46,952 nucleotides of DNA from Kiritimatiellia bacterium. GTDB lineage: Bacteria > Verrucomicrobiota > Kiritimatiellia > CAIQIC01 > Lenti-01. The first letter of the stretch is position 1; each line of letters begins with the position of its first letter. This document shows positions 8,016 to 44,518 of the stretch, in pieces. A program made the translations under genes and the position numbers. The notes under the pieces are model-generated. The model worked only from the letters and a program-made list of their open reading frames with translations. It had not been told where the DNA came from and made no database searches. The DNA lies in assembly GCA_017458625.1 (NCBI GenBank), contig JAFTAH010000135.1:1-46952 (forward strand), written 5' to 3'.

Positions 8016-8147
8016 AGCATTTTGCGAAAATGCGTGGCCGCAAGGTTCGAAGGTGCGACATCCTGTCGCGCCCAAATTTATTGCGCGGCTGGAAGCCGCA
8101 CCTCCGGAAGCCGCCCGCCAAATGGCTACAGTTATTTGAAAACCGCT

Positions 8148-8151
<4 letters not shown>
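8012..8151 (+). repeat. MITE-like repeat, copy 1 (140 bp)
   Basis: Bounded by CTAG at both ends. The left end is CTAGAGCATTTTGCGAAAA and the right end TTTGAAAACCGCTCTAG, imperfect terminal inverted repeats. Inside are strong hairpins: GCGACATCCTGTCGC and GCGGCTGGAAGCCGC. Copy 2 at 13035-13173 is nearly identical along its whole length. The right-end CTAG forms the TAG stop of ettA. Confidence 0.88.
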
Positions 8152-13034: not shown

Positions 13035-13173
13035 CTAGAGCAGTTTGCGAAAAAGTGTGGCCACAAGGTTCGGAGGTGCGACATCCTGTCGCGCCCAAAT
13101 AATTACGCGGCTGGAAGCCGCACCTCCGGAAGCCGCCCGCCAAATGGCTACAGTAATTTGAAAACCGCTCTAG
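13035..13173 (+). repeat. MITE-like repeat, copy 2 (139 bp)
   Basis: Starts CTAGAGCAGTTTGCGAAAA and ends TTTGAAAACCGCTCTAG. Collinear with copy 1 at 8012-8151 with a handful of substitutions; shares the hairpins GCGACATCCTGTCGC and GCGGCTGGAAGCCGC. Its right-end CTAG is shared with copy 3. Confidence 0.88.
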
Positions 13174-14522: not shown

Positions 14523-15865
14523 GGGAGGGAGCCTTTCGTGGGGACAACCGGGGAGGTGGAGAGATGGGCACGGCGGAGGGGCGGCGTGCCGAGAGGGGTG
14601 GCATCGGCCAGTAGAAGGCGCTGGCCGCGTTCAAGGGTGCGGAGGGACTTGCGGACGGCCGCAGGGAGGTCGCGGTGGAGGAGCTGGAGGCGGGCAAAGG
14701 ATCCGTCGGGGAGGCACGCGGGGCAGAGGGTCTGGCCCTTGGCAAAGGTGGGCGAGGCGACCAGGCGGGCGGCAAGGGGGGCGGTGTCGCTCGTCGGAGC
14801 GGCAGCGGGGGCGGGTGTAAGGGCGAGGAAGGTGAAAGCGAGGTGGCGGAGATCGCGGTGGAGGGCAGTGGCAAGAATCTGGAGGGTGCGCGGGAGAGGG
14901 AAGGTGCGGACGGCGTGGCAGGGCTCGCGCAGCGGGCATGCCAGTTCGTGAGGACAAGGGGCCAGGAGGTGGAGGTGCAGGGTGTCCATGGCGTAGTCAC
15001 GCCAGGCGCGGAGACGGTCGCCTACGGCGCGGACAAGGGGTTCGCAGAGGAGCAGGATGCCGTCCGGGGCGAGAAAGCGCGCGGCGTGCTCGAGGAGGGC
15101 AAGCTGTTCGTCCGGGGGAAGCTCGTTGAGGACGTAGTGGAGGATGACGAGGTCGTAGGCGTGTGGAGGGAGGTCAAGATCGCGAGCGGACGTGAGATGG
15201 GTCCGGAGGAGGGCGGTGGGGAAAGCGGAGGGACGGAGAGCGAGGAAGGTTTCGTGAAGGGCTCGAAGGGCGGCACGAGAGGTGTCGCAGACGTCGAGGG
15301 AGAGGGCGGCATGGCCGACGGCGGCGGCGCGGGCCAGCGCGGGCCAGGCGGCGGCGCCGGTGCCAGCGCCCAGGTCGAGGATACGGTAGGGACGGCGGGG
15401 CTCGGGAGCACGGAGAGGCAGCTCGGGGAGCACGAGGTTCATGCGGGCGTGCGTCAGCGGCGCGAAGTAGAGAGAGTAGGCAATGGCGTGGCGGGCAGTA
15501 CGGAGGTAGATGGGATCGGAGGAGGCGGCGGGCGCAGGCGCTGCGGCAGGGGCAGCAGGGACGGCGGCCGACGCGGCATCGGCGGGAGGTCGGGGTTGGG
15601 GGCTGGCGGCCGGGGCAGATGGCACCGAAGCGGGCGGAGTCCCCTCCCCCGGGGTCTTGGCGGGCGGCGGCAAGGACGGGCGGGCCGTGGTAAAGCGGTC
15701 GGCCAGGCGGCGGATGTCGGGAAGCAGGCGCTGGATGGCATCGCGGTCGGAGAGAGCCCGGGTTTCGCGCTGGGCCTGTCGGAGCCAATAGGCTTCGAGG
15801 GCGGGGGGATAGGCGGGCGTCAGGAGGGAGGCGGTGGCAGTAGCGAGAGGTGAAGTGTAGGACAT
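14519..15865 (-). CDS. Rsm22-like SAM-dependent methyltransferase
   Basis: 448 residues from ATG 15865 (MSYTSPLATATASLL); the frame is open to a TTG at 15898. The SAM motif I is YRILDLGAGTGAAAWPAL. Family marks of the Rsm22/METTL17 group (PF09243) are YVLNELPPDEQLALLEHAARFL, LLCEPL, and the Cys motifs APCPHELACPLREPCH and GQTLCPACLPDG. Members are thought to modify or help assemble the small ribosomal subunit. A Pro/Ala-rich low-complexity linker lies at about residues 75-130. Translationally coupled to thrC through an ATGA overlap, though no functional link between the two is known. Confidence 0.85.
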   Translation of the reverse strand: MSYTSPLATATASLLTPAYPPALEAYWLRQAQRETRALSDRDAIQRLLPDIRRLADRFTTARPSLPPPAKTPGEGTPPASVPSAPAASPQPRPPADAASAAVPAAPAAAPAPAASSDPIYLRTARHAIAYSLYFAPLTHARMNLVLPELPLRAPEPRRPYRILDLGAGTGAAAWPALARAAAVGHAALSLDVCDTSRAALRALHETFLALRPSAFPTALLRTHLTSARDLDLPPHAYDLVILHYVLNELPPDEQLALLEHAARFLAPDGILLLCEPLVRAVGDRLRAWRDYAMDTLHLHLLAPCPHELACPLREPCHAVRTFPLPRTLQILATALHRDLRHLAFTFLALTPAPAAAPTSDTAPLAARLVASPTFAKGQTLCPACLPDGSFARLQLLHRDLPAAVRKSLRTLERGQRLLLADATPLGTPPLRRAHLSTSPVVPTKGSLP

Positions 15866-22629: not shown

Positions 22630-23237
22630 TTTCTCGCCTCCGCGATGAATTGTTGCATTTTTGCGAAATCCTTGAAGCCGCCGGTTTCGACGCCGCTGCT
22701 GGCGTCGACCCCGCGAGGCCGCGCGAACCGTACGGCCTCCGCGACGTTTTCCGGGGTCAGGCCGCCGGCAAGCCAAAAGGGGCGACTGAACGGATGTCCA
22801 GCCAAAATCCGCCAGTCGAACGGCACGCCGCCGCCGGCGCCGGCGTCCAGCAGGACGAGGTCCGCGGACGACGCCTCCGCCGTCGCGAGGTCGTCCGCCG
22901 TGCGCACCTTCACCGCGCGAACCAGCGGAACGCCCGGAACGAGCGCGCGGAGCGCCGCGATGCGCTCCTCGTCGCCGTCGGCGGAGTGCAATTGCACCGC
23001 GTCGATGGCGCCGGAGGCGACGACGGCGGCGATGGCCTCCGGCGAGTCGCCCGCGAAAACGCCCGCCGCCACGATGCCGGGGGCCAGGCACCGCTTCAGG
23101 GCCAGCGCCTCGGTTGGCGTGACCCGCCGGCGGCTCCCGGCGGCGAAGACGAACCCGACGGCGTCGGGTCGCAGGCGGTTGGCAAAATCGACGTCCTCGG
23201 GCCGCCGCAGACCGCAGATTTTGACCTTGACCGTCAT
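22626..23237 (-). CDS. trpF: phosphoribosylanthranilate isomerase
   Basis: 203 residues. [16 protein letters not shown] is the family N-terminus (Cys general base in KICG); [46 protein letters not shown] and [14 protein letters not shown] follow, and [13 protein letters not shown] is the classic C-terminal phosphate loop. It acts between TrpD and TrpC. ATGA overlaps at both ends link it to trpC and trpB. Confidence 0.96.
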
Positions 23238-24025
23238 GCCAGCCCCCGCAATTCGGCCAGCTTGGCGCGTTTGTCGGGGGCGCGCATCATGGCCTCGCCC
23301 ACGAGGATGGCATCAACGCCCGCCTCCCGCAGCACCCGCGCGCCGTCGCCGTCATGCACCCCGCTTTCGGCCACGAACACGGCCTCCGGTGGCACGAGCG
23401 GACGCAGCCCCGCGGCTTTGCCGCCGTCCACCGTGAAGTCGGCGAGGTTGCGGTTGTTCACGCCCACGATGCGTGCCCCGCAGGCGAGCGCCGTCTCGAT
23501 TTGCGTCGCGTCGCGCGTCTCGACCAGCGCCGAGAGGCCCAGCTCCCGGCAGAGCGCGAGACCGTCGCGGAGCTGTGCGGCGTCGAGGAGCGAGACGATC
23601 AGCAGCACCGCCTCCGCCCCCAGCGCGGCGGCCTCCCAAATCATCCAGGGATCCACGGTGAAGTCCTTGCGGAGGCACGGCACCGCCACGGCGGCCGCGA
23701 TGTCGCGCAGGTGCGCGTCGCTTCCCAGGAACCACCTCGGCTCGGTCAGCACGGAAATCGCGTCCGCCCCGGCCTCCGCATAGCTCCGGGCGATGTCGAC
23801 CGGCGCGTAGTCCTCCGCGATGACGCCCTTCGACGGCGACGCCTTCTTGCACTCGCAGATGAAGGAGAGTCCCGGCGCTCGCAACGCCCGGTAGAAGGCG
23901 TCCGGCGCGGCCCCGGCGCGGCGTTCCCGCGCCAGCGCCTCCAGCTCGCGCTGCGGCAACTTTGCCTTTGCCGCCGCCACGCGCTCCCGCGCATGTTCGG
24001 CAATGGTTTCGAGAATGGTGGTCAT
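23234..24025 (-). CDS. trpC: indole-3-glycerol phosphate synthase
   Basis: 263 residues. [15 protein letters not shown] carries the conserved [63 protein letters not shown] and [11 protein letters not shown] are the other IGPS motifs. The first codons (MTTILE) and the two bases before ATG belong to a 20-bp sequence that is repeated at 30490-30509. The gene is intact here and has its own AGGGGAG ribosome site, but is separated from trpD by about 7.6 kb of inserted DNA. Confidence 0.96.
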
Positions 24026-24027
24026 GG
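24008..24027. repeat. 20-bp direct repeat, left copy (att-like, 5' end of trpC)
   Basis: TTCGAGAATGGTGGTCATGG, identical to 30490-30509. On the minus strand it contains the trpC start codon and codons 2-6. Flanking bases of the two copies differ, so the match is sharply limited to 20 bp. Confidence 0.85.
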
Positions 24028-24092: not shown

Positions 24093-27000
24093 TCATTTCT
24101 CTTTGGTCATTTGAACGTCCACGGCGTATTCGCCGAAGCGGACCTCATAGCGTTTTACGGGTCGGTCGTAGACATTGACATCCATGTGGCCGGTAATGAA
24201 CGTGTTGTCTGCCAGCCACTGCGTGTTGTCGGTTCCGAACATCTCGCATTCCATTTCGTTGGACTTGAACGACATGGCGCCGGAACCGGACGCAGCGCAT
24301 TCTTCCAACCTCTTCATCCACTCCAGCTGTTCCAGTCCAGGGGTGTTCTTGGCGGGAACCAGGAGGAAAAGATAGTCGGATGCACGACTCACGGCGACGT
24401 TGAGCAGAGATTCCCTATTCACGAGACTTCTTCCTGACCCATGTCCCGGAGGATTCAGACAGACAATCATGATAGTGCACTGGTCGCCTTGGAACCTATG
24501 GACGGTTCCGACGACAATCTTGCATCGTCCGGGGCGTTCGGCTAGCCGGTGTTCGACAATGCGGGCAATCATGTCGGCCTGAACCTTGTAGGGAGAGACG
24601 ATGCCAATCGAAGGTGTTTCTTCCCCCTCTTTCACGGACACAATTCCGTCGAGGAACAAGGCGAATTCGGCGGCAAAAAGGGCGGAATAGACGTGGAACG
24701 CGCTGCCACCGACGGTCCGAGGATGGTAGATGTTTTCGTGTTTTGCGTCGAACGGGAATCGGATGATATTGACAGGCCCGGCCGCCATTCGCAATTCCAA
24801 TCCGATCGGGCGGATGGAGTTGGGTGTTCTTGCGTGCTGGAGGCGTCCATTGTAGGCAAATCGGCTGAAAACGTCGCCAATTGCCGGAACACTCCGATGT
24901 TGTATGTCCAGGCGCTGGATTTCGTAATCCCCGATGGGAGTCCGGTCCAACTCAAATGAGTCGATGCCGAAGAAGGTATAAACATTCTTGTCTTCGAGAT
25001 ATTCATTTTGCGTGACCGGAGGAAGTTGCTTGGGGTCGCCGGCCACGACAAACGACGCTTCCGGTCGTTGCAACAAGAGATAGACCGCATAGGGCAGTTC
25101 GATCATGGACGCTTCGTCCAAAAACACCTCGGTCCATTCCTCTTCTCTCAACGGACGGCCTGTTCCCTTGTTCGGGCGGGTCGTGTCGTAAGGATAGCGG
25201 GCCACCGTCGTGACAAGCACCAGCTTGCCGAAAGCGGAAACGTCCACGTTTTTCTCGCAATAGACTCTTTCGTCGCGCTGCAAGGTCTCGTCCATCGTTC
25301 CGCCGAAACGCACAAGCCAATCCGTAGGCGGCGTGGACGGGTTCCTGCGCGCCAGTTCCAATATCCGAAGCGTCAAGACGTCGGCCGCTTTGTTCGTGGG
25401 GGCCAAGACGAGTATTTTCTCCGCGGTCCCGCTGCTCATTCGGGTAAGCAGCATTTTCGCGAGCTGTTCCGTCTTCCCGGTCCCGGGAGGCCCGAACACG
25501 AATGTCACGCGGTCATTGGGCGGCAGAAATTGCGTAATTTCATCGTCAGGTAGGAAAAGAGCCCCATCTGCCTTGTGAAGTTCCTTGAATCGCTCTTCGA
25601 GTCGTTGAAGCAGGAAGTCGGGTTCGGAGACGGAAATGGTCGCAAGGCCGACGCGGGAAAAGTCGTATCCTTCGAGTTGCTCTTCGCGGCTCAACAGGAC
25701 GACAAGCCGGTCCGAATCAATGGACGTGCCGACTGCGCGGAACGTCCGGCTCAAGTCACCCTGTTTCATGTCAATGAGAATGACATCCTTGTCAGCCAGC
25801 TGGGCGGGGATGTCGCGGCTGGGCATGGACAGAACAATCGTCCGCTTTGCACTTTCGTCGCGCTCGACCCGTCCGAATGCGATGGAAAACGACGCCTTGG
25901 GGCCGCTGCGGTTTTTGTTGCCGCGATTTCCGTATTCAAGAGCTTTCACAAACCATCCGAACGATGTGGGAGGAAGGTCGTGCAAAGAAGTCTGGAGTTC
26001 TTGTTCGGCAACAATCGCTTGTCTGGCTTTTTCCGTTTCCCTCTCCAGTTCTTCCAGCTTTTCGTCGATGGTTTTCTCTTCAACCGGAGACTTCACCGAA
26101 GGAGCAGGACGTGAAATTGTGGATGTATCGACGGTTTCGAGGGAACCTTTCAAGAATTTTGGCGTGCGCAGCGGAGGCGGTGGCATGGCAGACGTATTCT
26201 CTCCGGGGCTGGCCCCCAATTCCGTGCTGGCGGGATGTTGGGAAAACGGACTGAATGTCGCAATGTCTGGCGTCTCCTGGGGCACACTTGTTGAGTTTTC
26301 AGGCACCGCAAGAGATGCCTTCGCATGCCGAATCCGTGCCCGTTCCTTCAACTCGGCTTTCAGTTCTTCTTTCGACACACCGGCTTCGGCTGCAAGGCTT
26401 GTCAATTCGTCAGCTTCCCGGACTTTCTCTTCCTGTTCGGGCGTCATCCCGGGAGCAGCGGTGGAAATGCCGAGCCCTTCCATGAGCACCTTGGAGGCGA
26501 TGCTGTTGACCTCGTATTGGTCATGAAGGTCTCGAACATGCGTATGACAAGGGGCCGTCCAGTTTCCATCACGGGAGAGAAGCCATTCCGTGTTTTTAAG
26601 CCGGTCGAGAATCGGGGAAGGAAACTGTCTTGTTTTTTGGGTGTAGCGATACCACTCATAATGTGCTTCAAACAGTGAAGCAAGGGATGTCGCCGAACGA
26701 TTTTCAAAATTTCGTTGCAGTGTATTCCAAAGCAAAACGGAAAGTCCGGGTCCCCTTGACTGTATCGTTCGCCGAAGAACCCCTTCCAACCCCTCGATTG
26801 ACTTGATTAACCAACGGCGGCCAAAACCGGACGACGGCGAGGAAGGTGGAAACCTTTCGTAATCTTTTTCGAGAATCGCGCGCTCTTGTTCCGTTTCCCG
26901 GCGCACGATTTTCCTCGGAGAGGAACTAACACCGAGTCTTTCAAAGAAATCCAGGAGACCTTGAAAGTCAGATTCGGCAACGGCTTCCCGATATTTGTCC

Positions 27001-29009
27001 TTCGCGAGGAAGTGAACATCGAATCCTTCAAACCATAAATGCAAGTCCTCCGATGGAAGGTATAACGACGAGGGGTAGCGCAACCATTCTCCGTCGTCCG
27101 CCAGCAAACATGGCGTGTTTTTCATGGCATTTTCGATTTCTTCCCGATCCTGTCCGGAACCTTCCCGCCACGCCCGGAACATCAACTTCATGTCCTCAAC
27201 GGGATGTTCAACGGGTGTTTCGGATTGATATTTGGGAAGAATGACGTTGAATACTTCGTCTCGAATGGACGGTTCCTGCAGATGCAGCGTTTCTTTGAAG
27301 AACTTCACCAGCTCAGGTTTCTCAAGCAGGGACGGTTCAAGAATCGTCGCACTCTCAAAAGCCGCTTCTTTTGACGGCAGGAATAGGCTCGGTTGGGGTT
27401 TTCCAGCCGCGTCGAGAGCCGTCGCGGGATGGAACGCCCCGTCTTTTCCGAGAAAAATGGCTTTTGATTGGACGGCCTTGAGTTGTTTGGTCGAAGAGTA
27501 GTTGTCCTGGATGAACAGATACAGCCGGTCCAGCCATTCTCGCGGTCGGGCGGAGAGAAAACCGGGAGACAGTGACAGTTTGTCGAGTATATCTTCGATG
27601 GAGAAGTGTTTTGCAATCAAATCATCCTTGTAGTCACGCGGAGAATACGAGCCTGGATACGAATTGGCGACAGGACGCCCTGACGTCGTGAACACCCATT
27701 TTGCACCCGGCGCACCAATCAGTTCCGCAAGAAGCGAGTTGTCGAAAAGTTGGAGAATTTCAGCAGATTCAGCCCAATAAGCGTTCGTGCCGACCACGTA
27801 TCGGCTTGCCAGCGGTTCCGATTCTGTCGATGACAGTAATCTCCGTTCTTTCAGATACGATTGAACATGGATAAAAATCGGTGCAAACCTGTACGGATGT
27901 GTCCAACACTTGAGCCACCTGTCAAAGCCAAAGAACCGGGATTTGTCCGTAGGAACGACATTGAACACGTTATCATCGATGATTGGAATGTCTCGTTCAA
28001 TTCCCCAGTCCCGGAGAAAGACGAGAGAATCCGCGGCCAACAGTCCGAGCTTGTCAATCAAATCGTCATTATAGCTCGTTTCCTGCACGCCTTCGCGACT
28101 GTCCGTGAGCAGGAACGGTGCATGGACGAGGAATTTCAGCTCCCTGCGGAGTTGCGTCGGAAAAAAGCAATAGACGGGACCATGGCATTCTTGCAATTTC
28201 TCGAAATTTCCGTCCGTTCCGAACACGACGCTATACGGATGCTGGCTGCTCCCATTTCTGGAAAACTTCACATAGTGTTCGCTGATGGTTGTCCCACCGT
28301 TTCCGGTGACATGGCGGCTGCAAACAGTTTCAACACGAAGGGATGCATCTTGGGTTGGAACGGTCGAGAATTCGATTTCATGCACACCGCTTTCCGAAGT
28401 TGACTTGTAGTCAATCTTCCTGAGGGAATGCAGAAACAGCAAGGGTCTGTCCAACGATGCCAGCTTCTGGACAATATCGGAACACGCTTGTTCATGCATG
28501 CCGTCCTTGAAGGGAAAAACAAAAACGGTCCAACCTTCGGCGCGAAGCATTTCAATGTCGTCTGGGACTTCCTCCAAAAGAACGGGGACAATGTAATCAT
28601 CGATGCGGAAGCAGAAATCCTGATCGTAAATCCGGGGCGCATCCGTATACTGGAATACGGCTTTGAATCCGACACCGAATTTTCCGATGGATGCTTCCTG
28701 TTTATTGGAGGCGGCGACGGCCGTAATGGCGTTTACGTCTCCATTTTCCAAAGCGATGGAAGAAATTGTGAAATGACGAGTTCCATTGTGGGCGAAAATA
28801 AGTTCGCTCTGCCGGACTTCAAATTGGGCTTCGGTTGCATGGGAATCATCCGCGTTTTGGAGCAACTCGTAGATGAAATGCGCTTTGTCGGAATATTTCT
28901 CGACGATTCCCCGCCAAATGCCACCAATGGATTTTTTCCTGAATACCCGAAGGGAGTCGAGCCGATCCGCAACGAGTTCATCAAACAATTGTCGCTGTTC
29001 TGGTGTCAT
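24093..29009 (-). CDS. GHKL (sacsin-type) ATPase - SF1 UPF1-like helicase fusion
   Basis: 1638 residues. N-terminus: a Bergerat-fold ATPase of the sacsin/NO VEIN type, with N-box HFIYELLQNADDSHA (about 44-58), the G1-region HNGTRHF and G2 loop ASIGKFGVGFKAVFQYTD (about 103-120). A long middle part (about 250-930) has no motif I know. A Pro/Ser-rich, charged linker with a likely coiled coil (KLEELERETEKARQAIVAEQ) lies around 940-1000. C-terminus: SF1B helicase with Walker A FVFGPPGTGKTEQ (~1175), Walker B VFLDEASMIE (~1298), motif III VVAGDPKQLPPV, IQHRSVPAIGD, VVGTVHRFQGDQ and motif VI NVAVSRASDYLFLL (~1535). Paired GHKL and UPF1-like helicase parts suggest an ATP-driven nucleic-acid machine, probably anti-phage defence; that role is inference. 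Starts after AGGAG, 12 bp behind the AlbA_2 gene. Confidence 0.85.
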   Translation of the reverse strand: MTPEQRQLFDELVADRLDSLRVFRKKSIGGIWRGIVEKYSDKAHFIYELLQNADDSHATEAQFEVRQSELIFAHNGTRHFTISSIALENGDVNAITAVAASNKQEASIGKFGVGFKAVFQYTDAPRIYDQDFCFRIDDYIVPVLLEEVPDDIEMLRAEGWTVFVFPFKDGMHEQACSDIVQKLASLDRPLLFLHSLRKIDYKSTSESGVHEIEFSTVPTQDASLRVETVCSRHVTGNGGTTISEHYVKFSRNGSSQHPYSVVFGTDGNFEKLQECHGPVYCFFPTQLRRELKFLVHAPFLLTDSREGVQETSYNDDLIDKLGLLAADSLVFLRDWGIERDIPIIDDNVFNVVPTDKSRFFGFDRWLKCWTHPYRFAPIFIHVQSYLKERRLLSSTESEPLASRYVVGTNAYWAESAEILQLFDNSLLAELIGAPGAKWVFTTSGRPVANSYPGSYSPRDYKDDLIAKHFSIEDILDKLSLSPGFLSARPREWLDRLYLFIQDNYSSTKQLKAVQSKAIFLGKDGAFHPATALDAAGKPQPSLFLPSKEAAFESATILEPSLLEKPELVKFFKETLHLQEPSIRDEVFNVILPKYQSETPVEHPVEDMKLMFRAWREGSGQDREEIENAMKNTPCLLADDGEWLRYPSSLYLPSEDLHLWFEGFDVHFLAKDKYREAVAESDFQGLLDFFERLGVSSSPRKIVRRETEQERAILEKDYERFPPSSPSSGFGRRWLIKSIEGLEGVLRRTIQSRGPGLSVLLWNTLQRNFENRSATSLASLFEAHYEWYRYTQKTRQFPSPILDRLKNTEWLLSRDGNWTAPCHTHVRDLHDQYEVNSIASKVLMEGLGISTAAPGMTPEQEEKVREADELTSLAAEAGVSKEELKAELKERARIRHAKASLAVPENSTSVPQETPDIATFSPFSQHPASTELGASPGENTSAMPPPPLRTPKFLKGSLETVDTSTISRPAPSVKSPVEEKTIDEKLEELERETEKARQAIVAEQELQTSLHDLPPTSFGWFVKALEYGNRGNKNRSGPKASFSIAFGRVERDESAKRTIVLSMPSRDIPAQLADKDVILIDMKQGDLSRTFRAVGTSIDSDRLVVLLSREEQLEGYDFSRVGLATISVSEPDFLLQRLEERFKELHKADGALFLPDDEITQFLPPNDRVTFVFGPPGTGKTEQLAKMLLTRMSSGTAEKILVLAPTNKAADVLTLRILELARRNPSTPPTDWLVRFGGTMDETLQRDERVYCEKNVDVSAFGKLVLVTTVARYPYDTTRPNKGTGRPLREEEWTEVFLDEASMIELPYAVYLLLQRPEASFVVAGDPKQLPPVTQNEYLEDKNVYTFFGIDSFELDRTPIGDYEIQRLDIQHRSVPAIGDVFSRFAYNGRLQHARTPNSIRPIGLELRMAAGPVNIIRFPFDAKHENIYHPRTVGGSAFHVYSALFAAEFALFLDGIVSVKEGEETPSIGIVSPYKVQADMIARIVEHRLAERPGRCKIVVGTVHRFQGDQCTIMIVCLNPPGHGSGRSLVNRESLLNVAVSRASDYLFLLVPAKNTPGLEQLEWMKRLEECAASGSGAMSFKSNEMECEMFGTDNTQWLADNTFITGHMDVNVYDRPVKRYEVRFGEYAVDVQMTKEK

Positions 29010-29021
29010 GGGGACTCCTGT

Positions 29022-30344
29022 TTATTTCTCGCATTTCCTGTAAATGGTTCTTGGGCCGGAGCCCTCCTTGACGATTTTCCCTGCGGCAACCAACTTGCGC
29101 AAATCCCGGACGGCGGTTGCCGCCGAGATGCCGAAGCGGGTCTGGACGTCTTCGCGGGTGAGGGTCCCTTTTCCGGCGAGGAGGGCGAGAATCGCCTCGG
29201 CGCGGCTTGACGCCGCCGGGGGCGGCGCGGATGCCGCGGCGTCTCCGGCCGTAGCCGCGGCGTTCCGGTTGAAGAGCGTGATTTTGAACACGTGCGGCGC
29301 GTGGTCGATGCGCGGGGGCTTGGCAAAATCCCGGTAGCTGGCGTTGATCTTGAGGAGGCCGGTCCCGTAGGCCTCGATCAGGCCGAGGCGGTAGAAGACG
29401 TTGGCCAGCTTCCGGTTCCGCAGGGCGGAAACGCCGAGCGCAAAATCGTTCGCGTCGAACCAGGGGACGAGGCCGCCGATGGACAGAATCTCCAGGCGGT
29501 CGGAAAAGACGCTCGCGAGATTGGAATCCGGGAGCGAATAGTCGCGGTGGACGAAGGCGTTGAGGAGGGCTTCGCGCACCGCCTCTTCCGGATAGTCGCG
29601 CCGGTCGATGCGGCGGATTCCGCGGTATTCGGAGCTTTCGGCGTTCCACCGGCCCAGAAACGCCATGGCGGAGTCCACCTGCCCCAGAATCGACCCCGTC
29701 GTTTCGAGACGGTCCCGGAAGGCCATTTTCGCGTCGTCGCCCCAGACCGCGATTTTGGTGGTGAACGGGCACTGGTCGGAGAGCAGCAGCGCCAGGTTCG
29801 TGTAGGTTCCGTCGTCGGCGACAAGCCCGAGCGTCTTGCGCTGGGCCGGGCCGAAGGCGACGCGGGCCGCCTTGAACGCCGCATCGGCGGAGCGGAACGA
29901 AAGGTTCTGTTCGAGCGAGCGCGACGACTCGAAAACGTCGCCGTAGTTTTCCCGGATCAGCTCCCGGATGCGTGCGTCGGAAGCCGGGACGGAGGAGGCG
30001 CCTTGCCGGACGTAGACGCCGGACGGTCGCAAGCCTTTCTTCGCGATGTAATACGGGCGGCCGCTCCCGCGCTCGACCCGGACGCGCAGGATGGTTTTCC
30101 CGTCGCGCTCGATGGACTCGCAACGGGTGAACAGCGTCACGTCCGGCCGGATGGAGTGCCGCATCATGTTGGTGATGCGCAACCCCGTGCCGTCCACGTC
30201 CTTGAGGCCCACCGTGGTCCCGTCGTCGTCGACCCCGACGAGAATCGTCCCGCCGGTACCGTTCGCGAAGGCCACGACGGTGTTGCGGATGGTTTCCGAA
30301 TATTCGCGCTTGAATTCAAGATGTTCCGATTCGACCGGCTTCAC
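29022..30344 (-). CDS. Schlafen/AlbA_2-domain ATP-binding protein with C-terminal winged helix
   Basis: 440 residues. N-terminal AlbA_2 domain: ESEHLEFKREYSETIRNTVVAFANGTGGTILVGVDDDGTTVGL (the E-x-EFK and GG.I..GV.D.G pattern). Middle: a RecG-C-terminus-like GHKL ATPase, with PEEAVREALLNAFVHRDYS as N-box and LEILSIGGLVPWF plus YGTGLLKI as the following loops. C-terminus (about 365-435): a winged-helix DNA-binding region (EDVQTRFGISAATAVRDLRKLVAAGKI). Such proteins occur as regulators and as parts of defence loci. The start is GTG 30344, set by AAGGAG seven bases upstream; the nearby ATG is followed by a stop after one codon. First gene of the inserted module; probably regulates it or works with the helicase. 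Confidence 0.85.
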   Translation of the reverse strand: MKPVESEHLEFKREYSETIRNTVVAFANGTGGTILVGVDDDGTTVGLKDVDGTGLRITNMMRHSIRPDVTLFTRCESIERDGKTILRVRVERGSGRPYYIAKKGLRPSGVYVRQGASSVPASDARIRELIRENYGDVFESSRSLEQNLSFRSADAAFKAARVAFGPAQRKTLGLVADDGTYTNLALLLSDQCPFTTKIAVWGDDAKMAFRDRLETTGSILGQVDSAMAFLGRWNAESSEYRGIRRIDRRDYPEEAVREALLNAFVHRDYSLPDSNLASVFSDRLEILSIGGLVPWFDANDFALGVSALRNRKLANVFYRLGLIEAYGTGLLKINASYRDFAKPPRIDHAPHVFKITLFNRNAAATAGDAAASAPPPAASSRAEAILALLAGKGTLTREDVQTRFGISAATAVRDLRKLVAAGKIVKEGSGPRTIYRKCEK

Positions 30345-30387: not shown

Positions 30388-30437
30388 ATCCTATCACGTC
30401 AAATCAATCGCGTCAATCAAATCATCGAATCACGTCA
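30388..30437 (-). promoter_or_regulatory. promoter with iterated sites for the AlbA_2-helicase module
   Basis: Minus strand: TTGACG (30411-30416), 17 bp, TAGGAT (30388-30393). Three copies of TGAC-G-[TC]-GAT (ATCACGTCA at 30393-30401 and 30429-30437, ATCGCGTCA at 30407-30415 on the plus strand) overlap and surround it, a typical autoregulator arrangement. The AlbA_2 protein's winged helix is a candidate binder. Confidence 0.6.
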
Positions 30438-30507
30438 TTGCTCGCAAGATGCGATGCTGGACGGCAAGTCGAGGCCGAAGGGTTGGCGATTCGAGAATGG
30501 TGGTCAT
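30430..30507 (-). pseudogene. trpC 5' remnant
   Basis: ATG at 30507 preceded by AGGAAG; reads MTTILESPTLRPRLAVQHRI then LRAMT and stops. The first six codons are identical at DNA level to those of trpC, then identity ends abruptly. It is the leftover of an older trpC start cut off by the insertion. Confidence 0.6.
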
Positions 30508-30509
30508 GG
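30490..30509. repeat. 20-bp direct repeat, right copy
   Basis: TTCGAGAATGGTGGTCATGG, identical to the copy spanning the trpC start at 24008-24027. Confidence 0.85.
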
Positions 30510-30529: not shown

Positions 30530-30550
30530 GGCGGCCCGGGGACCGCCCGG
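30530..30550. repeat. REP-like palindrome next to the RAYT gene
   Basis: GGCGGCCCGGGGACCGCCC plus GG, followed by AGACTCTGATGG. A second copy with the same tail (AGACTCGGATGG) lies inside the RAYT gene at 31140-31160. Confidence 0.75.
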
Positions 30551-30574: not shown

Positions 30575-31582
30575 TCATTTTCGGGAGGAGAGGAGGAGGT
30601 CGCCCATTTCGTGGCAGCGGCGGTGGAGGGTGGGGTTGTCGAGGCGGGTTGTTTGAGGAGGCCAGAGGGAGAGGAAGAGCATGCGGCCTTCGGCGCAGAG
30701 CTTTTCCTTGGCGCGGGAGGGATGCCAGCGTTCGGGAAAGCCCTCGGGCGCGAGGACGACGTGCGAGCCGCCGGCCTTGTAAATGGCGTTTCCGCAGGCT
30801 TTTTCGCAGGGGCTGAGGAAGGTGCCCACGCCGGCGCCGCCGGGGCCGATGCGTTCCGCGCGGGCGAAGGCGTCGCGCCACTCGGGGCTGTCTTCGGTCC
30901 ACGAGCGGGAGCAACGGAAGGGCTCCAGCACGGGCAGCTCCAGCAGGGCCGAGTTGCCGTAGGCGAACCAGTCGCGGTTGGCGAAAGCGAGCTTGCCGAG
31001 GCGCGTGAAAAACTGCCAGTTTTCGCGGCGAAGCCACGCGCGGCGCGGGTTCTCGCGGATGTAGCGCGTAAAGGCGGCGAGCTGGCCGCGTTTCATGACA
31101 ATCCAGTCGTGCCAGTCGGTTTCGAAAACGGAGGGCGGGGGCGGCCCGGGGACCGCCCGGCCAGACTCGGATGGAGTGGGGGAATCTGCGTTTTGCGGGG
31201 CGGTCACCGGGCCGCCCGCCCACCCCACTGTCTGCCAAAGAGCCGACCCCAGTGCCCGGACCAAGTGCACCACATAGCTTCCCAGCGGGAAGCGGTCGGG
31301 CGTGTCCTCGATTTTCAGCAACAGGTGTAGGTGGTCGGGCATGACAATGAAGCACTCGATGGGGGCGATGCCGCGCCATTTTTGCGCAAAGCCGCGAATC
31401 ACCTTGGCAAAAGCGCGGGTCACGCCGTTGGCAAGCAACCAGCACTCGCGTCCCGCGGCGTCGCGCGGCGGGGGTGTCCCGGGTGGTGCAAGGGCGGAGA
31501 ACTCCGGCACGCCGGGGCGCTTTTTCAGCGTCACCATGTAGAACAGGGGGCGCCGGTAGTCGAAGCCGTCGAGGCGGGGCAC
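30575..31582 (-). CDS. REP-associated tyrosine transposase (RAYT, Y1/HUH family)
   Basis: 335 residues. The HUH metal motif is in IECFIVMPDHLHLLLKI (about residue 80). The catalytic Tyr is probably in FTRYIRENPRRAWLRRENW. RAYT proteins nick single-stranded REP palindromes and are thought to spread them. The REP sequence at 31140-31160 lies inside the gene and is translated as SESGRAVPGPPPPSV, so the element has entered its own transposase gene in frame. A further palindrome half (CACCGGGCCGCCCG) lies at 31205-31218. The start is GTG 31582, ten bases after the trpD stop. It lies downstream of trpD inside the trp operon. Confidence 0.88.
   Translation of the reverse strand: MPRLDGFDYRRPLFYMVTLKKRPGVPEFSALAPPGTPPPRDAAGRECWLLANGVTRAFAKVIRGFAQKWRGIAPIECFIVMPDHLHLLLKIEDTPDRFPLGSYVVHLVRALGSALWQTVGWAGGPVTAPQNADSPTPSESGRAVPGPPPPSVFETDWHDWIVMKRGQLAAFTRYIRENPRRAWLRRENWQFFTRLGKLAFANRDWFAYGNSALLELPVLEPFRCSRSWTEDSPEWRDAFARAERIGPGGAGVGTFLSPCEKACGNAIYKAGGSHVVLAPEGFPERWHPSRAKEKLCAEGRMLFLSLWPPQTTRLDNPTLHRRCHEMGDLLLSSRK
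31140..31160. repeat. REP-like palindrome inside the RAYT gene
   Basis: Same 21-bp palindrome as at 30530-30550 with the conserved AGACTC.GATGG tail; in frame, adding a Pro/Gly-rich loop to the protein. Confidence 0.75.
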
Positions 31583-31592
31583 TGGGGGCCTT

Positions 31593-32612
31593 TCAGTGGC
31601 TGGCCTTGGCGAAGGCTTCGAGGGTGGCGAGGGCCTTGCCGGAGTCGATGAGGTCGGCGGCGAGGGCGATGCCGTCGCGCATGGTCGGGGCCTTGTCGCC
31701 GAGGTAGAGCGCGGCGCCGGCGTTAAGCAGCACCGCGTCGCGCTTGGCGCCGCGCTCTTCGCCGCGAAGGATGGCGCGCGTGATTTCGGCGTTTTCGGCG
31801 GGGGTGCCGCCGACGAGTTCCTCCTTGCGGTGGCGCGTCAGGCCGAAATCCTCGGGCGCAATCGCGTATTTCTTGTACCACCCGTCGCGGAACTCGCAGA
31901 TCGACGTCTCGGCGCTCGCGGAAATCTCGTCGAGGCAGTCCATGCCGTAGACCACCATGCCGCGCCGCACGCCCAGCCCGATCAGCACCCGCGCCAGCGG
32001 GTCGGTAAGGTATTCGTCGTAGACGCCCAGCAGCTGCACCTTCGGCGACGCGGGGTTCGTCAGCGGGCCCAAAATGTTGAACACGGTGCGGATGCCGAGT
32101 TCCTTGCGGATGGGGCCGACGTATTTCATCGACGTGTGGTATTTCTGTGCGAACAGGAAGCAGATGCCGACCTCCTCCAGCAGCTGCCGGCACTTCTCCG
32201 GCGCGAGGTCGATGTTCACGCCCAGCGCTTCGAGGCAGTCGGCGGTGCCGCATTTCGACGACGCGGCGCGGTTTCCGTGCTTGGCCACCTTCATACCGCC
32301 CGCAGCCGCCACCAGCGCCGACGTGGTGGAAATGTTGAAACTGTGGGCGTGGTCGCCGCCCGTCCCGACGATTTCGAAGACGTCCATCCCGCCGGTGTCC
32401 ACCTTCTGCGCGCGCTCCCGCATGGCCGCGGCGCAACCCGCGATTTCGTCGGCGGTTTCGGCGCGCGCGCTTTTCGTGGACAGCGCCGCGAGAAAGGCCG
32501 CGTTCTGGGTGGGGGTGGTCTGGCCGTCCATGATTTCGCCCATGACGGCGAAGGCCTCGTCGTAGGCGAGGTCGCCCTTGGACACGATTTTGACGATGGC
32601 TTCCTTGATCAT
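31593..32612 (-). CDS. trpD: anthranilate phosphoribosyltransferase
   Basis: 339 residues. [21 protein letters not shown] carries the GTGGD PRPP-binding motif; [22 protein letters not shown] and the metal-site [13 protein letters not shown] (usual DE) are typical; [11 protein letters not shown] is conserved. It joins anthranilate and PRPP. ATG overlaps the trpG stop by four bases. Downstream it is followed directly by the RAYT gene instead of trpC. Confidence 0.96.
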
Positions 32613-33191: not shown

Positions 33192-34658
33192 TCACGCCTC
33201 CTCTGCGGCGGTTTCGAGCGCCTTGAGCGACGCCCTCGCCTTGTTCAGGCATTCCTGGTATTCCTTTTCCGGATCCGAATCCGCTACGATGCCCGCGCCG
33301 CTCCGCACGAACACCCGACCGTTCTTCTTGTAGGCGATGCGGATGGCGATGCACGTGTCCATGTTGCCCGCGAAATCCACGTAGCCGATCGCCCCGCCGT
33401 AGATGCCGCGCTTGTTGCGCTCCAACTCGCCGATCAGCTGGCAGGCGCGGATTTTCGGTGCCCCGGAAAGCGTCCCTGCCGGCAGCACCGCCCCGATGGC
33501 GTCCAGGGCGTCGCGGTCGGGACGGATTTCGCCGCGCACCGTCGAGCCGATGTGCATCACGTGGGAGTAGCGCTGCACGTCGTGGAACTTTTCCACTTGC
33601 ACCGTGCCGAACTTCGAGATGCGGCCCAGGTCGTTCCGCCCGAGGTCTACGAGCATGTCGTGCTCCGCCAGCTCCTTGGGGTCGGCGAGAAGCTCCGCCT
33701 CCAGCGCCTTGTCCTCGGCCTCGTCGCGGCCGCGCGGCCTCGTCCCCGCCAGCGGGAACGTGTGCAACACGCCGTTTTCGAGCTTCACGAGCGTCTCCGG
33801 CGACGCCCCGGCGACCTCCACGTCGGTGCCGGAGAAGTAGAACATGTAGGGCGAGGGGTTGATCGTGCGCAGCACCCGGTAGGTGTCGAACAGACTCCCC
33901 TCGAACGGCGCGGAAAGGCGGTTGGAAAGCACAATCTGAAAAATGTCGCCGTCGCGAATGTACTGCTTCGCGCGCTCGACCATCGCACAGAACTCCTCCT
34001 CGCCGAACAGCGGCTCCACCGGCCCCGCGAGACGCCCCGGCTCCTCCCGGCGCTTCGCCCCGCCGCGCAGCAGCGCCGCCATCCGCTCGATTTCCAGCGC
34101 CGCCCGGTTGTACTCCGCTTCCAGGTCGCCGCCCAGCCGCACGTTCGCGATCAGCACGATCTTCTGCCGCACGTTGTCGAAGGCGATCACCTTGTCGAAC
34201 AGCATCAGGTCCAGGTCCTGGAACTTTTCGGAGTCGTCCACGTCGCGGCGGATGCTCGGCTCAGCGTAGCCCAGGTAATCGAACGCAAAATACCCCACCA
34301 GCCCTCCCGTGAACGGCGGAAGCCCCTCCAACCGCGGCGACCGGTGCACCGCCAGCAGCTTGCGCAGCTCCGCCGACGGGTCGTCCGTCGCGATCTCCAA
34401 GTCGCCGATCCGCATCCTCCCGTCCAGGCACGTGATGTCCAGCTTCGGGTCGTACCCCAGGAACGTGTAGCGCCCCCACGACTCGTTCGCCTGCGCCGAT
34501 TCCAGCATGTACGCGTGCGTCGAAATGTTCTTCAGCACCCGCAGCGCCTCGATCGGCGTCGTCACGTCCGAGAGGATTTCCGCCGACAGCGGCACCACGT
34601 CCCATTTCCCTTCCGAGGCCAGGGCCCGCGTTGCTTCCAGGCTTGGTGTTGTCTTCAT
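33192..34658 (-). CDS. trpE: anthranilate synthase component I
   Basis: 488 residues. HAYMLESAQANESWGRYTFLG holds the LLES-type tryptophan feedback site (MLESA); the chorismate-binding domain has GDIFQIVLSNRLS, SPYMFYF, GTRPRGRDEAEDKALEAELLADPKELAEHDMLVDLGRNDLGR, AGTLSGAPKIRACQLI, GGAIGYVDFAGNMDTCIAIR and GAGIVADSDPEKEYQECLNKA. First gene of the operon E-G-D-(insert)-C-F-B-A. ATG 34658 follows GGAG. The leader is too short (about 25 nt) for a tryptophan attenuator. Confidence 0.97.
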   Translation of the reverse strand: MKTTPSLEATRALASEGKWDVVPLSAEILSDVTTPIEALRVLKNISTHAYMLESAQANESWGRYTFLGYDPKLDITCLDGRMRIGDLEIATDDPSAELRKLLAVHRSPRLEGLPPFTGGLVGYFAFDYLGYAEPSIRRDVDDSEKFQDLDLMLFDKVIAFDNVRQKIVLIANVRLGGDLEAEYNRAALEIERMAALLRGGAKRREEPGRLAGPVEPLFGEEEFCAMVERAKQYIRDGDIFQIVLSNRLSAPFEGSLFDTYRVLRTINPSPYMFYFSGTDVEVAGASPETLVKLENGVLHTFPLAGTRPRGRDEAEDKALEAELLADPKELAEHDMLVDLGRNDLGRISKFGTVQVEKFHDVQRYSHVMHIGSTVRGEIRPDRDALDAIGAVLPAGTLSGAPKIRACQLIGELERNKRGIYGGAIGYVDFAGNMDTCIAIRIAYKKNGRVFVRSGAGIVADSDPEKEYQECLNKARASLKALETAAEEA

Positions 34659-39998: not shown

Positions 39999-40072
39999 CC
40001 CGGGACCCCGGGACTCCGGGACCCCGGGACCGCGCCCCCCCCCAACCCTTCAACCTTTCAACTTTTCAACCC
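39999..40072 (+). repeat. tandem 8-mers between glnB and amtB
   Basis: CCCGGGAC is repeated four times (39999-40030, one unit TCCGGGAC). After a C-run, units of the CAACCTTT kind follow at 40043-40072, right up to the amtB ATG. No Shine-Dalgarno. Confidence 0.8.
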
Positions 40073-41356
40073 ATGACCCCCGAAATCGTCCAACAAAACC
40101 TGAACACCGTCTGGACCCTCCTCGCCGCCATCCTCGTCTTCATGATGCAGGCCGGCTTCGCCCTCGTCGAAACCGGCTTCACCCGCGCCAAGAACGCGGC
40201 GAACATCATGATGAAGAACCTGATGGACTTCGCCGCCGGCTCCCTCGCCTTCTACCTCCTCGGCGCCGCCCTCATGTTCGGGGCCTCCGGCGCCGCCGGC
40301 TGGTTCGGCTGGGGCGGACTCGGCATGCCCACCCTCGCCTCGGGCGAAGGCGCGTGGGACTGGACCTTCCTCTTCTTCCAGACCATGTTCGCCGCCACCG
40401 CCGCCACCATCGTCTCCGGCGCCGTCGCCGAACGCATCGAATTCAAGAGCTACCTCATCTACTCCGTCCTCGTCTCCGCCCTTGTCTACCCCGTCAGCGG
40501 ACACTGGATGTGGGGCGGCCTCGCCGGCGAAGCCTCCGCGGGCTGGCTCGAAGCCCTCGGCTTCCACGACTTCGCGGGCTCCACCGTCGTCCACTCCGTC
40601 GGCGGCTGGATTGCCCTCGCCGGCGCCATCGCCCTCGGCCCCCGCCTCGGAAAGTACCGCCCCGACGGCAAGGCCAACCCCATCCCCGGCCACTCCCTCG
40701 TCCTCGGCACCCTCGGCGTCTTCCTCCTGTGGATCGGCTGGTTCGGCTTCAACCCCGGCAGCTACACTGCGGGCGTCCCCTCCATCGGACGCGTCGCCAT
40801 GACCACCAACCTCGCCGCCTGCGCCGGGACCTGCGCGGCCCTCGTCACCGCCTGGGCCATCATGGGCAAGCCCGATCTCACCATGGCCCTCAACGGCTCC
40901 CTCGCCGGACTCGTCGCCATCACCGCCCCCTGCGACCTCGTCACCGCCAACGCCGCCATCGCCATCGGCGCCATCGCGGGCGTCCTCGTCGTCCTCTCCG
41001 TCTTCGCCCTCGACCGCCTCCACATCGACGACCCCGTGGGCGCCGTCTCCGTCCACTGCGTCAACGGCGTGTGGGGAACATTGGCGGTGGGCCTTTTCGC
41101 CGCACCCGTCGCGGCGGGCTACGGCAACGAAACCGCCGGCCTCTTCTACGGCGGCTCCCTCCACACCCTCGGCGTCCAGGCCCTCGGCGTAGCCTCCACC
41201 GCCCTCTGGGCCTTCGGCACCGGCGCCGCCATCTTCGCCGCCCTCAAGCGACTCCACATTCTCCGCGTCTCCCCCACCACCGAACTCAAAGGACTGGACA
41301 TCGTCGAACACGGCGAAGATGCCTACGCCTCCTTCCAGTTCTTCTCCAACACCTGA
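40073..41356 (+). CDS. amtB: ammonium transporter
   Basis: 427 residues, 11 membrane helices without a cleaved signal peptide. The pore histidines are in FAGSTVVHSVGGWIALAGA and GAVSVHCVNGVWGTLAVGLFA; the Phe gate region is LFFQTMFAATAATIVSGAVAER; the signature is SALVYPVSGHWMWGG. The C-terminal tail TTELKGLDIVEHGEDAY is the conserved P-II contact segment. Imports ammonium/ammonia; paired with the upstream P-II gene. Confidence 0.96.
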   Translation: MTPEIVQQNLNTVWTLLAAILVFMMQAGFALVETGFTRAKNAANIMMKNLMDFAAGSLAFYLLGAALMFGASGAAGWFGWGGLGMPTLASGEGAWDWTFLFFQTMFAATAATIVSGAVAERIEFKSYLIYSVLVSALVYPVSGHWMWGGLAGEASAGWLEALGFHDFAGSTVVHSVGGWIALAGAIALGPRLGKYRPDGKANPIPGHSLVLGTLGVFLLWIGWFGFNPGSYTAGVPSIGRVAMTTNLAACAGTCAALVTAWAIMGKPDLTMALNGSLAGLVAITAPCDLVTANAAIAIGAIAGVLVVLSVFALDRLHIDDPVGAVSVHCVNGVWGTLAVGLFAAPVAAGYGNETAGLFYGGSLHTLGVQALGVASTALWAFGTGAAIFAALKRLHILRVSPTTELKGLDIVEHGEDAYASFQFFSNT

Positions 41357-41397
41357 TGCCCCGTCCCCTCTCCAGCCCCCCTGGATTCCCCGGAATT

Positions 41398-41796
41398 CTA
41401 GTCCCCGCTCCTGTGCACCAGCTCGATCCGCACCAACCGCCCCGCTCCCCTCAACACGAACGCGTCGCGGGTTTGCCTGAACAATCCTTTCACCGTTCCG
41501 GCATTTTCCAGCCGCTCCCACGGAATCCGCACCGGCCCGAAAAGCAGCGAGAACGGGAAAATCGCCCTCAACGACAAATGCCCCGGCAGCCGCCCCACGA
41601 GGAACATGTTGCTCGTCATGTCGTTGATCCAGATTCTCTCCCAGCGTTCCGGCTTCCGCTCCGTAGCGTCTCCCGGGCCTTCCTTTTCCGAAACCGCCTC
41701 CAGCTCCTTCCAGCCCATGTCGTCCCGGATGCCGAAAGCGACTAACAGCACCCAAAACACGGCCACCAGCACCAAAATGACACCCGGAAACACCAT
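41398..41796 (-). CDS. membrane-anchored protein of unknown function
   Basis: 132 residues with one N-terminal membrane helix (MVFPGVILVLVAVFWVLLVAF) and a soluble part of about 110 residues (WERIWINDMTSNMFLVGRLPGHLSL, GPVRIPWERLENAG, RQTRDAFVLRGAGRLVRIEL), which looks like a PH-like or small beta domain. ATG follows GGGAGAATTGCGAG. No family named with confidence. It runs against the flanking nitrogen genes. Confidence 0.65.
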   Translation of the reverse strand: MVFPGVILVLVAVFWVLLVAFGIRDDMGWKELEAVSEKEGPGDATERKPERWERIWINDMTSNMFLVGRLPGHLSLRAIFPFSLLFGPVRIPWERLENAGTVKGLFRQTRDAFVLRGAGRLVRIELVHRSGD

Positions 41797-41933
41797 CTCG
41801 CAATTCTCCCGTCACTTGCTCTCGTGTCCCGTCCTATACTGTGCCCGAGACTCATTTGTCAAGAACACCTGAAAAAAACTTGCCCTCCCGCCCTCCATCC
41901 TCCACACTCCCGCCCTCCCGTCCCCATTTTGCC

Positions 41934-44411: not shown

Positions 44412-44449
44412 ATTTTAGTCCGAAATCAAGTCCGAAATCAAGTCCAATT
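44412..44449 (-). promoter_or_regulatory. promoter/operator of the toxin-antitoxin operon
   Basis: Minus strand: TTGATT (44436-44441), 18 bp, TAAAAT (44412-44417). AGTCCGAAATCA is repeated exactly at 44417-44428 and 44429-44440, then degenerates at 44441-44449, overlapping the promoter as expected for autoregulation. Confidence 0.6.
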
Positions 44450-44466
44450 TCCATCTGAGTTTTGCC

Positions 44467-44486
44467 GGGCGGCCCCCGTGCCGCCC
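44467..44486. repeat. REP-like palindrome, GGGCGGC type
   Basis: GGGCGGC-CCCCGT-GCCGCCC, identical to 38936-38955. Confidence 0.7.
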
Positions 44487-44512
44487 ATCCCGTCCATCCC
44501 GTCCATCCCGTG
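44486..44512 (+). repeat. CATCCCGTC x3 before gltB
   Basis: Three 9-bp units (the last CATCCCGTG), ending six bases before the gltB ATG; no Shine-Dalgarno. Confidence 0.85.
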
Positions 44513-44518
44513 CTTGCC

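What the first reader, a model, noticed from the sequence alone, without database searches (positions are those of the whole stretch)
24093..30344. Two-gene GHKL-helicase / AlbA_2 module, candidate undescribed defence system
A 1638-residue protein joins an N-terminal sacsin-type GHKL ATPase (NADD box, GKFGVGFK loop) to a complete C-terminal UPF1-like SF1 helicase, with about 700 residues between that I cannot assign. It is preceded, 12 bp away, by a Schlafen/AlbA_2 protein that has its own GHKL ATPase and a winged helix. Two GHKL ATPases plus a helicase and a DNA binder, on more A+T-rich DNA dropped into a housekeeping operon, is the genomic signature of defence or conflict modules. Single-gene GHKL/helicase fusions are known as families; whether this exact pair is a described system I cannot tell.
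Basis: partly seen in the sequence, partly recalled or inferred. Interest (0 to 1): 0.8.

Follow-up and report, generated by a model that had tools for sequence, protein, structure and literature searches.

The report
Mobile GHKL-helicase and Schlafen defence cassette
Two probable anti-virus genes, a large ATPase-helicase and a Schlafen-type RNase, sit as one 6.5-kb insert at the start of a tryptophan-synthesis gene; the big gene belongs to a widespread family that has no name in the libraries searched, but its usual partner elsewhere is a different gene.

Summary
A 1638-aa sacsin/Hsp90-type GHKL ATPase fused to a complete Upf1-like SF1 helicase lies 12 bp downstream of a Schlafen(AlbA_2)-GHKL-winged-helix gene, inside a trp operon that is uninterrupted in relatives. 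New here: both genes lie between exact 20-bp direct repeats (the start of trpC, found nowhere else in the genome), so they look like one inserted cassette with its own promoter.

'Exact pair as a new system' is only partly supported. I collected 73 full-length homologues of the helicase protein from at least eight phyla. They are sporadic and sit among type III R-M, Argonaute, DISARM-like and other defence genes. Only 2 of 81 homologous loci have a Schlafen neighbour (not significant). The recurrent neighbour is the candidate nuclease-helicase PDC-S68 (20 loci, p=2e-13).

The Schlafen-HK-wHTH protein is a known auxiliary effector type with all three SLFN13 RNase carboxylates, so more likely an RNase effector/regulator than a mere DNA binder. 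The helicase protein shares Tiamat TmtA's N-terminal ~800 residues but not its C-terminus, and fits neither Tiamat nor Mokosh. Verdict: an uncatalogued family of a known kind (defence core gene with exchangeable partners). Anti-phage activity is inferred, not shown.

The parts
24093..29009 (-). GHKL(sacsin/Hsp90-type)-SF1 (Upf1-like) helicase protein, 1638 aa: GHKL ATPase ~1-200 with transducer-like region to ~340; TmtA-like middle ~340-850; low-conservation linker ~880-1000; helicase ~1000-1560; conserved C-terminal ~40 aa
   Evidence: Pfam/PADLOC/NCBIfam, 73-row alignment, AF2 models pLDDT 88 and 89.6, Foldseek
29022..30344 (-). Schlafen(AlbA_2)-HATPase_c_4-wHTH protein, 440 aa, GTG start; putative RNase effector/regulator, catalytic-triad equivalents E5, E10, D40
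   Evidence: Pfam; profile matches rSLFN13 5yd0 and 3lmm; E205/E210/D248 from PMC5862951
24008..24027 (.). Copy 1 of exact 20-bp direct repeat TTCGAGAATGGTGGTCATGG = 5' end of trpC
30490..30509 (.). Copy 2 of the 20-bp direct repeat, upstream of the AlbA_2 gene; with copy 1 it bounds a 6482-bp repeat-plus-insert unit
30388..30416 (-). Sigma70-like promoter TTGACG-17-TAGGAT with TG before the second hexamer, inside the insert just upstream of AlbA_2 (consensus match only)
30393..30437 (-). Three copies of TGACGYGAT overlapping/adjoining the promoter, the only three in the window: possible operator
30575..31582 (-). REP-associated tyrosine-transposase-like ORF (335 aa) between trpD and the cassette; outside the direct repeats, so probably an older neighbour
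   Evidence: NF047646, 23.9 bits, below cut-off
23234..24025 (-). trpC (IGPS), whose start codon is the insertion point
31593..32612 (-). trpD, upstream border of the interrupted trp operon

Best explanation
A mobile anti-phage (counter-invader) cassette inserted at the trpC start codon. SHOWN by sequence: both genes between unique 20-bp direct repeats, intact GHKL and SF1 helicase motifs, intact Schlafen triad, sporadic distribution, defence-rich neighbourhoods of homologues. INFERRED: the GHKL module binds ATP and closes (Hsp90/MutL-like dimer clamp), and its helical-beta middle region recognises an invader-derived complex or nucleic-acid end. That licenses the C-terminal Upf1/Dna2-like helicase to translocate 5'-3' and strip or unwind the invading nucleic acid. 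No nuclease was detected in this protein, so destruction depends on a partner. In many genomes that partner is the adjacent PDC-S68 helicase with a PD-(D/E)XK-like end; here it would be host nucleases and/or the Schlafen protein, which when activated through its own small GHKL/wHTH part would cleave tRNA/rRNA and stop translation (abortive infection). The wHTH may also repress the shared promoter through the TGACGYGAT repeats.
For: Direct repeats exactly at trpC's ATG and upstream of AlbA_2, only two exact copies in the 2.69-Mb genome; trp operon uninterrupted in relatives. Joining the flanks gives trpD-Tnp-AGGAAG-5nt-ATG trpC. Own promoter-like site. 73 full-length homologues, absent from the 8 family relatives searched. 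Neighbours include type III REase (3), ResIII-type helicases (12 of 107), Piwi/pAgo (2), DrmD/DrmA, HmaA, GmrSD, Fic, and PDC-S68 in 20 loci; plasmid homologue L007 in a type III R-M operon. TmtA and MkoA model hits. Fold matches sacsin/Hsp90 and Upf1/Ighmbp2/Sen1/Dna2. SLFN13 triad conserved; Schlafen-HK-wHTH RNases are published backup effectors of BREX. Single-gene insertion between 191-bp repeats in L064.
Against: No phage-protection experiment for this family was found. AlbA_2 next to the helicase is rare (2/81 other loci) and the two genes differ in composition, so functional coupling may be nil. Polarity (5'-3'), substrate (DNA or RNA), GHKL dimerisation and RNase activity are by analogy. 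The window genome shows no PDC-S68 (80% complete MAG), so a dedicated DNA nuclease partner is missing here. 20-bp exact repeats are not unique in this G+C-rich window (nine of at least 20 bp), though this one lies at the insertion borders.
Confidence: 0.6

Rival explanations
1. The GHKL-helicase is a self-sufficient (or PDC-S68-assisted) defence gene, and the Schlafen gene is an independent second defence gene that merely shares the insertion (passenger; defence-island stacking).
For: Partner varies between loci: PDC-S68 in 20, type III R-M in a few, Schlafen in 2, none visible in many. Single-gene insertion in L064. Composition of the two genes differs sharply. Schlafen-HK-wHTH genes occur beside many unrelated systems.
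Against: 12-bp spacing, one direction, one promoter and one pair of direct repeats here; co-directional Schlafen neighbours within about 50 bp in L033 and L065 as well.
Confidence: 0.55
2. A true two-gene system: Schlafen RNase (toxin/effector) held inactive and triggered by the GHKL-helicase sensor.
For: Shared insert and probable operon in the window; two further adjacent pairs (L033 Spirochaetaceae, L065 Porphyromonadaceae) with the same Schlafen-HATPase_c_4 domains.
Against: Enrichment of Schlafen beside the helicase is not significant (2/128 against 1/599, p=0.08); gene order reversed in the other two; the Schlafen proteins are only 21-24% identical; compositions differ.
Confidence: 0.2
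3. Not defence: a mobile-element maintenance or DNA/RNA repair/quality-control helicase-chaperone (sacsin-like chaperone plus Upf1-like remodeller).
For: Hsp90/sacsin and Upf1 resemblances; two homologues on plasmids.
Against: Sporadic distribution, consistent defence neighbours, Tiamat-related N-terminus.
Confidence: 0.12

Closest known systems
Tiamat (TmtA), single-gene defence system
   Same: Same N-terminal ~800 residues by profile: GHKL plus middle region (PDLC03972, E 1e-48, residues 39-821 to model 38-802)
   Different: The model's C-terminal ~500 residues are not matched; a full SF1 helicase stands there instead
Mokosh (MkoA/MkoC)
   Same: COG1112/Upf1-like SF1 helicase part (MkoA E 8e-28)
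   Different: Only the helicase part matches; the other parts of the models are not matched; a GHKL module is present instead
PADLOC PDC-S68 (candidate)
   Same: Recurrent adjacent partner of this helicase family (20 of 81 loci); RecD-like SF1 helicase, probable PD-(D/E)XK C-terminus
   Different: A different protein; absent from the window genome as far as assembled
MORC/paraMORC GHKL proteins of R-M systems; GHKL-Shedu (VcSduA)
   Same: GHKL ATPase as regulator/clamp coupled to helicases or nucleases in defence (PMC2292703, PMC12137116)
   Different: Those use SF2 helicases in separate genes or a DUF4263 nuclease; here a sacsin-type GHKL is fused to an SF1 helicase
Schlafen RNase-minimal histidine kinase-wHTH auxiliary effectors (BREX and other loci; PMC12839542)
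   Same: Identical three-domain order in the 440-aa protein; SLFN13 triad present
   Different: No BREX core gene was found beside it; the partner here is the GHKL-helicase

Membership tests
Tiamat (TmtA) | Single protein matching a TmtA model over its length | tested here: not met
   Best model PDLC03972 covers 38-802 of 1302 only; homologue L080 38-925
Tiamat (TmtA) | N-terminal GHKL/HATPase module with TmtA-type middle | tested here: met
   AF2 model and Foldseek
Mokosh | SF1 helicase of MkoA/MkoC type | tested here: met
   MkoA 7.5e-28, MkoC 5e-18, helicase part only
Mokosh | Full-length match to MkoA or MkoC (their non-helicase parts included) | tested here: not met
   Best stretches lie within residues ~1320-1550 only; no kinase or phospholipase-D domain in Pfam
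Sacsin-type GHKL ATPase family | SACS / P_loop_sacsin domain above curated cut-off | tested here: met
   PF25794 53 bits (cut-off 32.8), NF047352 75 bits (cut-off 50)
UPF1-like SF1 helicases | Motifs I, Ia, II, III, IV, V, VI and Upf1 fold | tested here: met
   Invariant GPPGTGKT, PTNK, DE..M, GDP.Q..P, Q.R, H.FQGD, N...SRA; Upf1 top hit E 8e-26
Schlafen RNase-HK-wHTH auxiliary effector | AlbA_2/Schlafen + minimal GHKL + wHTH order | tested here: met
Schlafen RNase-HK-wHTH auxiliary effector | SLFN13 active-site carboxylates E205, E210, D248 | tested here: met
   E5, E10, D40 by profile alignment to 5yd0 (residues)
Schlafen RNase-HK-wHTH auxiliary effector | tRNA/rRNA cleavage on phage infection | not testable with these tools
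   needs biochemistry
New two-gene system GHKL-helicase + AlbA_2 | Recurrent adjacency beyond chance | tested here: inconclusive
   2 of 128 adjacent slots against 1 of 599 others, p=0.08
GHKL-helicase + PDC-S68 module | Recurrent adjacency beyond chance | tested here: met
   19 of 128 against 2 of 599, p=2e-13, related loci not corrected for; but each also occurs alone

The most novel reading that the evidence does not exclude
The GHKL(sacsin)-Upf1-helicase proteins form a defence family not yet named in the libraries searched, whose recurrent form is a two-gene module with the RecD-like nuclease-helicase PDC-S68. In the window lineage a Schlafen tRNase has replaced that DNA-targeting partner, so one sensor chassis drives either genome destruction or translation shutdown.
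Probability: 0.2. Interest if true: 0.75.

Novelty: new variant of a known kind. Interest (0 to 1): 0.55.

Why it matters
It delimits a widespread (at least eight phyla), deeply diverged family of ~1600-residue GHKL-SF1-helicase proteins that NCBIfam (June 2026) and PADLOC (2023) match only as fragments of other families. It names the statistically recurrent partner (PDC-S68), which makes a testable two-gene hypothesis out of two orphan candidates. The clean direct-repeat-bounded insertion at a start codon shows how such defence cassettes can enter an operon while giving the displaced gene a new ribosome-binding site.

Tried and rejected
Viral-contig scan with the helicase protein: no relatives. 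Terminal inverted repeats at the insert ends: none seen by eye in the sequences. A recombinase inside the insert: none seen; the transposase-like ORF lies outside the repeats. Similar repeats around other homologues: clear flanking repeats only in L064; repeats in L028 and L048 look like multi-copy families. Literature: no paper found on this architecture; [quoted passage not shown] C-terminal tails of longer homologues (L012, L040): no Pfam domain. Co-occurrence of PDC-S68 with the helicase in 299 genomes of one family: 3 and 2 genomes, no overlap, only two candidates per genome scored.

Full report
WHAT IS THERE. The window is one contig of a 2.69-Mb, ~80%-complete genome; a same-class relative holding a homologue (G313, same 5254-bp contig as L036) is Candidatus Spyradenecus, of the PVC group. 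On the minus strand lies a trp operon: trpE 33192-34658, trpG, trpD 31593-32612, then trpC 23234-24025, trpF, trpB. Between trpD and trpC are three extra genes: a REP-transposase-like ORF (30575-31582), the AlbA_2 gene (29022-30344) and the GHKL-helicase gene (24093-29009). In eight genomes of the same family trpD is followed directly by trpC (about 40 bp apart in the closest, trpD 67% identical), so among the genomes seen the interruption is particular to this one.

THE INSERT. An exact 20-bp direct repeat, TTCGAGAATGGTGGTCATGG, lies at 24008-24027 (the first codons of trpC) and at 30490-30509, just upstream of AlbA_2. It has no other copy with fewer than three mismatches in the genome. Joining the outer flanks gives a plausible ancestral junction...CCCCAGGAAGCAACC-ATG-ACC..., with a ribosome-binding site for trpC; the insert supplies a replacement (CAGGGGAGTTGCC-ATG). 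The window has nine exact direct repeats of 20 bp or more, so repeat length alone is not proof; its position at both borders is what argues for one insertion. Inside it, upstream of AlbA_2, are a promoter-like TTGACG-17-TAGGAT and three TGACGYGAT copies, the only ones in the window; the promoter scan as a whole found no more sites than shuffles do. The helicase gene is compositionally foreign (GC3 0.59 against 0.85-0.93 in the trp genes); the AlbA_2 gene is not (0.85). The two may therefore have had different histories before they were joined. No recombinase or terminal inverted repeat was recognised, so how the segment moved is open.

THE LARGE PROTEIN. Residues 33-131 match the sacsin GHKL domain (Pfam SACS; NCBIfam P_loop_sacsin above cut-off) and 1160-1550 the SF1 helicase core. 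PADLOC's TmtA (Tiamat) model matches 39-821 continuously and MkoA the helicase, so the 'unassigned' middle is Tiamat-like. I collected 73 full-length sequences (window included) from Bacillota, Bacteroidota, Pseudomonadota, Spirochaetota, Acidobacteriota, Myxococcota, Planctomycetota, Thermodesulfobacteriota and the PVC relative; 315 stretches passed the tblastn filter. AlphaFold models from these alignments are good (pLDDT 88 for 1-900, 89.6 for 990-1638). Foldseek gives Hsp90, sacsin SR1 and ParE for the N-terminus, with nothing convincing listed that is specific to ~340-850. For the C-terminus it gives Upf1 (E 8e-26), Ighmbp2, Sen1 and Dna2. By eye the middle repeats a motif like WLLxxDGxWxxPxxL at ~438, 518, 635 and 809. 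No nuclease domain was recognised. The family is sporadic: in 388 genomes of the phylum only the window's, G313 and (cut by a contig end) G237 carry it; in 299 genomes of one bacterial family, two.

THE SMALL PROTEIN. AlbA_2 + HATPase_c_4 + DeoR-like wHTH. A profile of it and relatives matches rSLFN13 (5yd0), SLFN11/12/14 and 3lmm. The three catalytic carboxylates of SLFN13 (E205, E210, D248; PMC5862951) align with E5, E10 and D40; the residue numbering of the 5yd0 chain was matched to the paper's by the spacing of the three residues. [quoted passage not shown]

ARE THEY A SYSTEM? Among 81 homologous loci with called neighbours, Schlafen/AlbA_2 is adjacent in two (L033, L065), downstream rather than upstream, against one among 599 non-adjacent genes (p=0.08). 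By contrast a ~1220-aa RecD-like protein, PADLOC candidate PDC-S68, occurs in 20 loci. It is adjacent in 19 of 128 slots against 2 of 599 (p=2e-13), in 13 loci immediately upstream and co-directional, mostly within about 35 bp. Relatedness of the loci is not corrected for in these p-values; on the tree the trait changes 14 times among 50 loci. The link is facultative: PDC-S68 was not found in the window genome or in ten of eleven further helicase-bearing genomes without it nearby, and in one bacterial family the two never coincided. Other neighbours are type III R-M genes (L007, and by homology L035, L046, L047), a Piwi protein in L046, pAgo, DrmD/DrmA, HmaA, GmrSD and Fic matches. In L064 the helicase gene alone sits between 191-bp direct repeats of 95% identity. 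The best reading is a defence core gene that travels alone or with exchangeable partners.

MECHANISM. Shown: intact ATPase, helicase and RNase motifs; joint insertion; sporadic distribution; defence company. Inferred: ATP-driven closure of the GHKL module on an invader-derived complex licenses the Upf1-like helicase; destruction is delegated to a partner nuclease (PDC-S68 elsewhere; its PD-(D/E)XK end is my reading of its C-terminal motif and weak profile matches) or to a Schlafen tRNase here; the wHTH may autoregulate. I put 0.6 on the overall defence-cassette reading. Within it, I put about 0.2 on true functional coupling of this exact pair and 0.55 on two independently useful genes; these overlap with the best explanation and do not sum to one.

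NOVELTY. Tested against libraries: no NCBIfam (June 2026) equivalog and no full-length PADLOC (2023) model; it fails full-length Tiamat and Mokosh tests while sharing a half with each. I found no paper on it, but the library lacks most subscription papers and preprints. New variant of a known kind.

Noticed in passing
window 30530-30550 and 31140-31160: REP-like palindrome GGCGGCCCGGGGACCGCCCGG twice (42-bp extended match, 88%), one copy inside the reading frame of the REP-transposase-like ORF 30575-31582; five copies in the genome at up to one mismatch.
   Followed up: partly
L012, L025, L032, L033, L038, L066, L070, L074, L078, L080, L083 and others: PDC-S68 (RecD-like, probable PD-(D/E)XK end) adjoins the GHKL-helicase in about 20 of 81 loci: a candidate two-gene system better supported than the pair in the finding.
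   Followed up: yes
L046:7204-16911 and L047:7203-16969: Type III R-M-like gene(s), GHKL-helicase and a ~695-aa protein in one line of co-directional genes; the ~695-aa protein of L046 matches Piwi.
   Followed up: no
L064:9629-9819 and 14920-15106: 191-bp, 95% identical direct repeats flank the GHKL-helicase gene alone, overlapping the 3' end of a neighbouring ORF.
   Followed up: partly
L068:6268-9969: PDC-S68 is split into two ORFs beside an intact GHKL-helicase: possible decay of the partner.
   Followed up: no
window 40058-41815 and 44438-46945 (-): Long ORFs of lower GC3 (0.58, 0.72) without any Pfam match at E 0.01.
   Followed up: no
window 8051-8151 and 13074-13173: Near-identical ~100-bp direct repeat with 49-bp and 27-bp exact blocks, about 5022 bp apart.
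   Followed up: no
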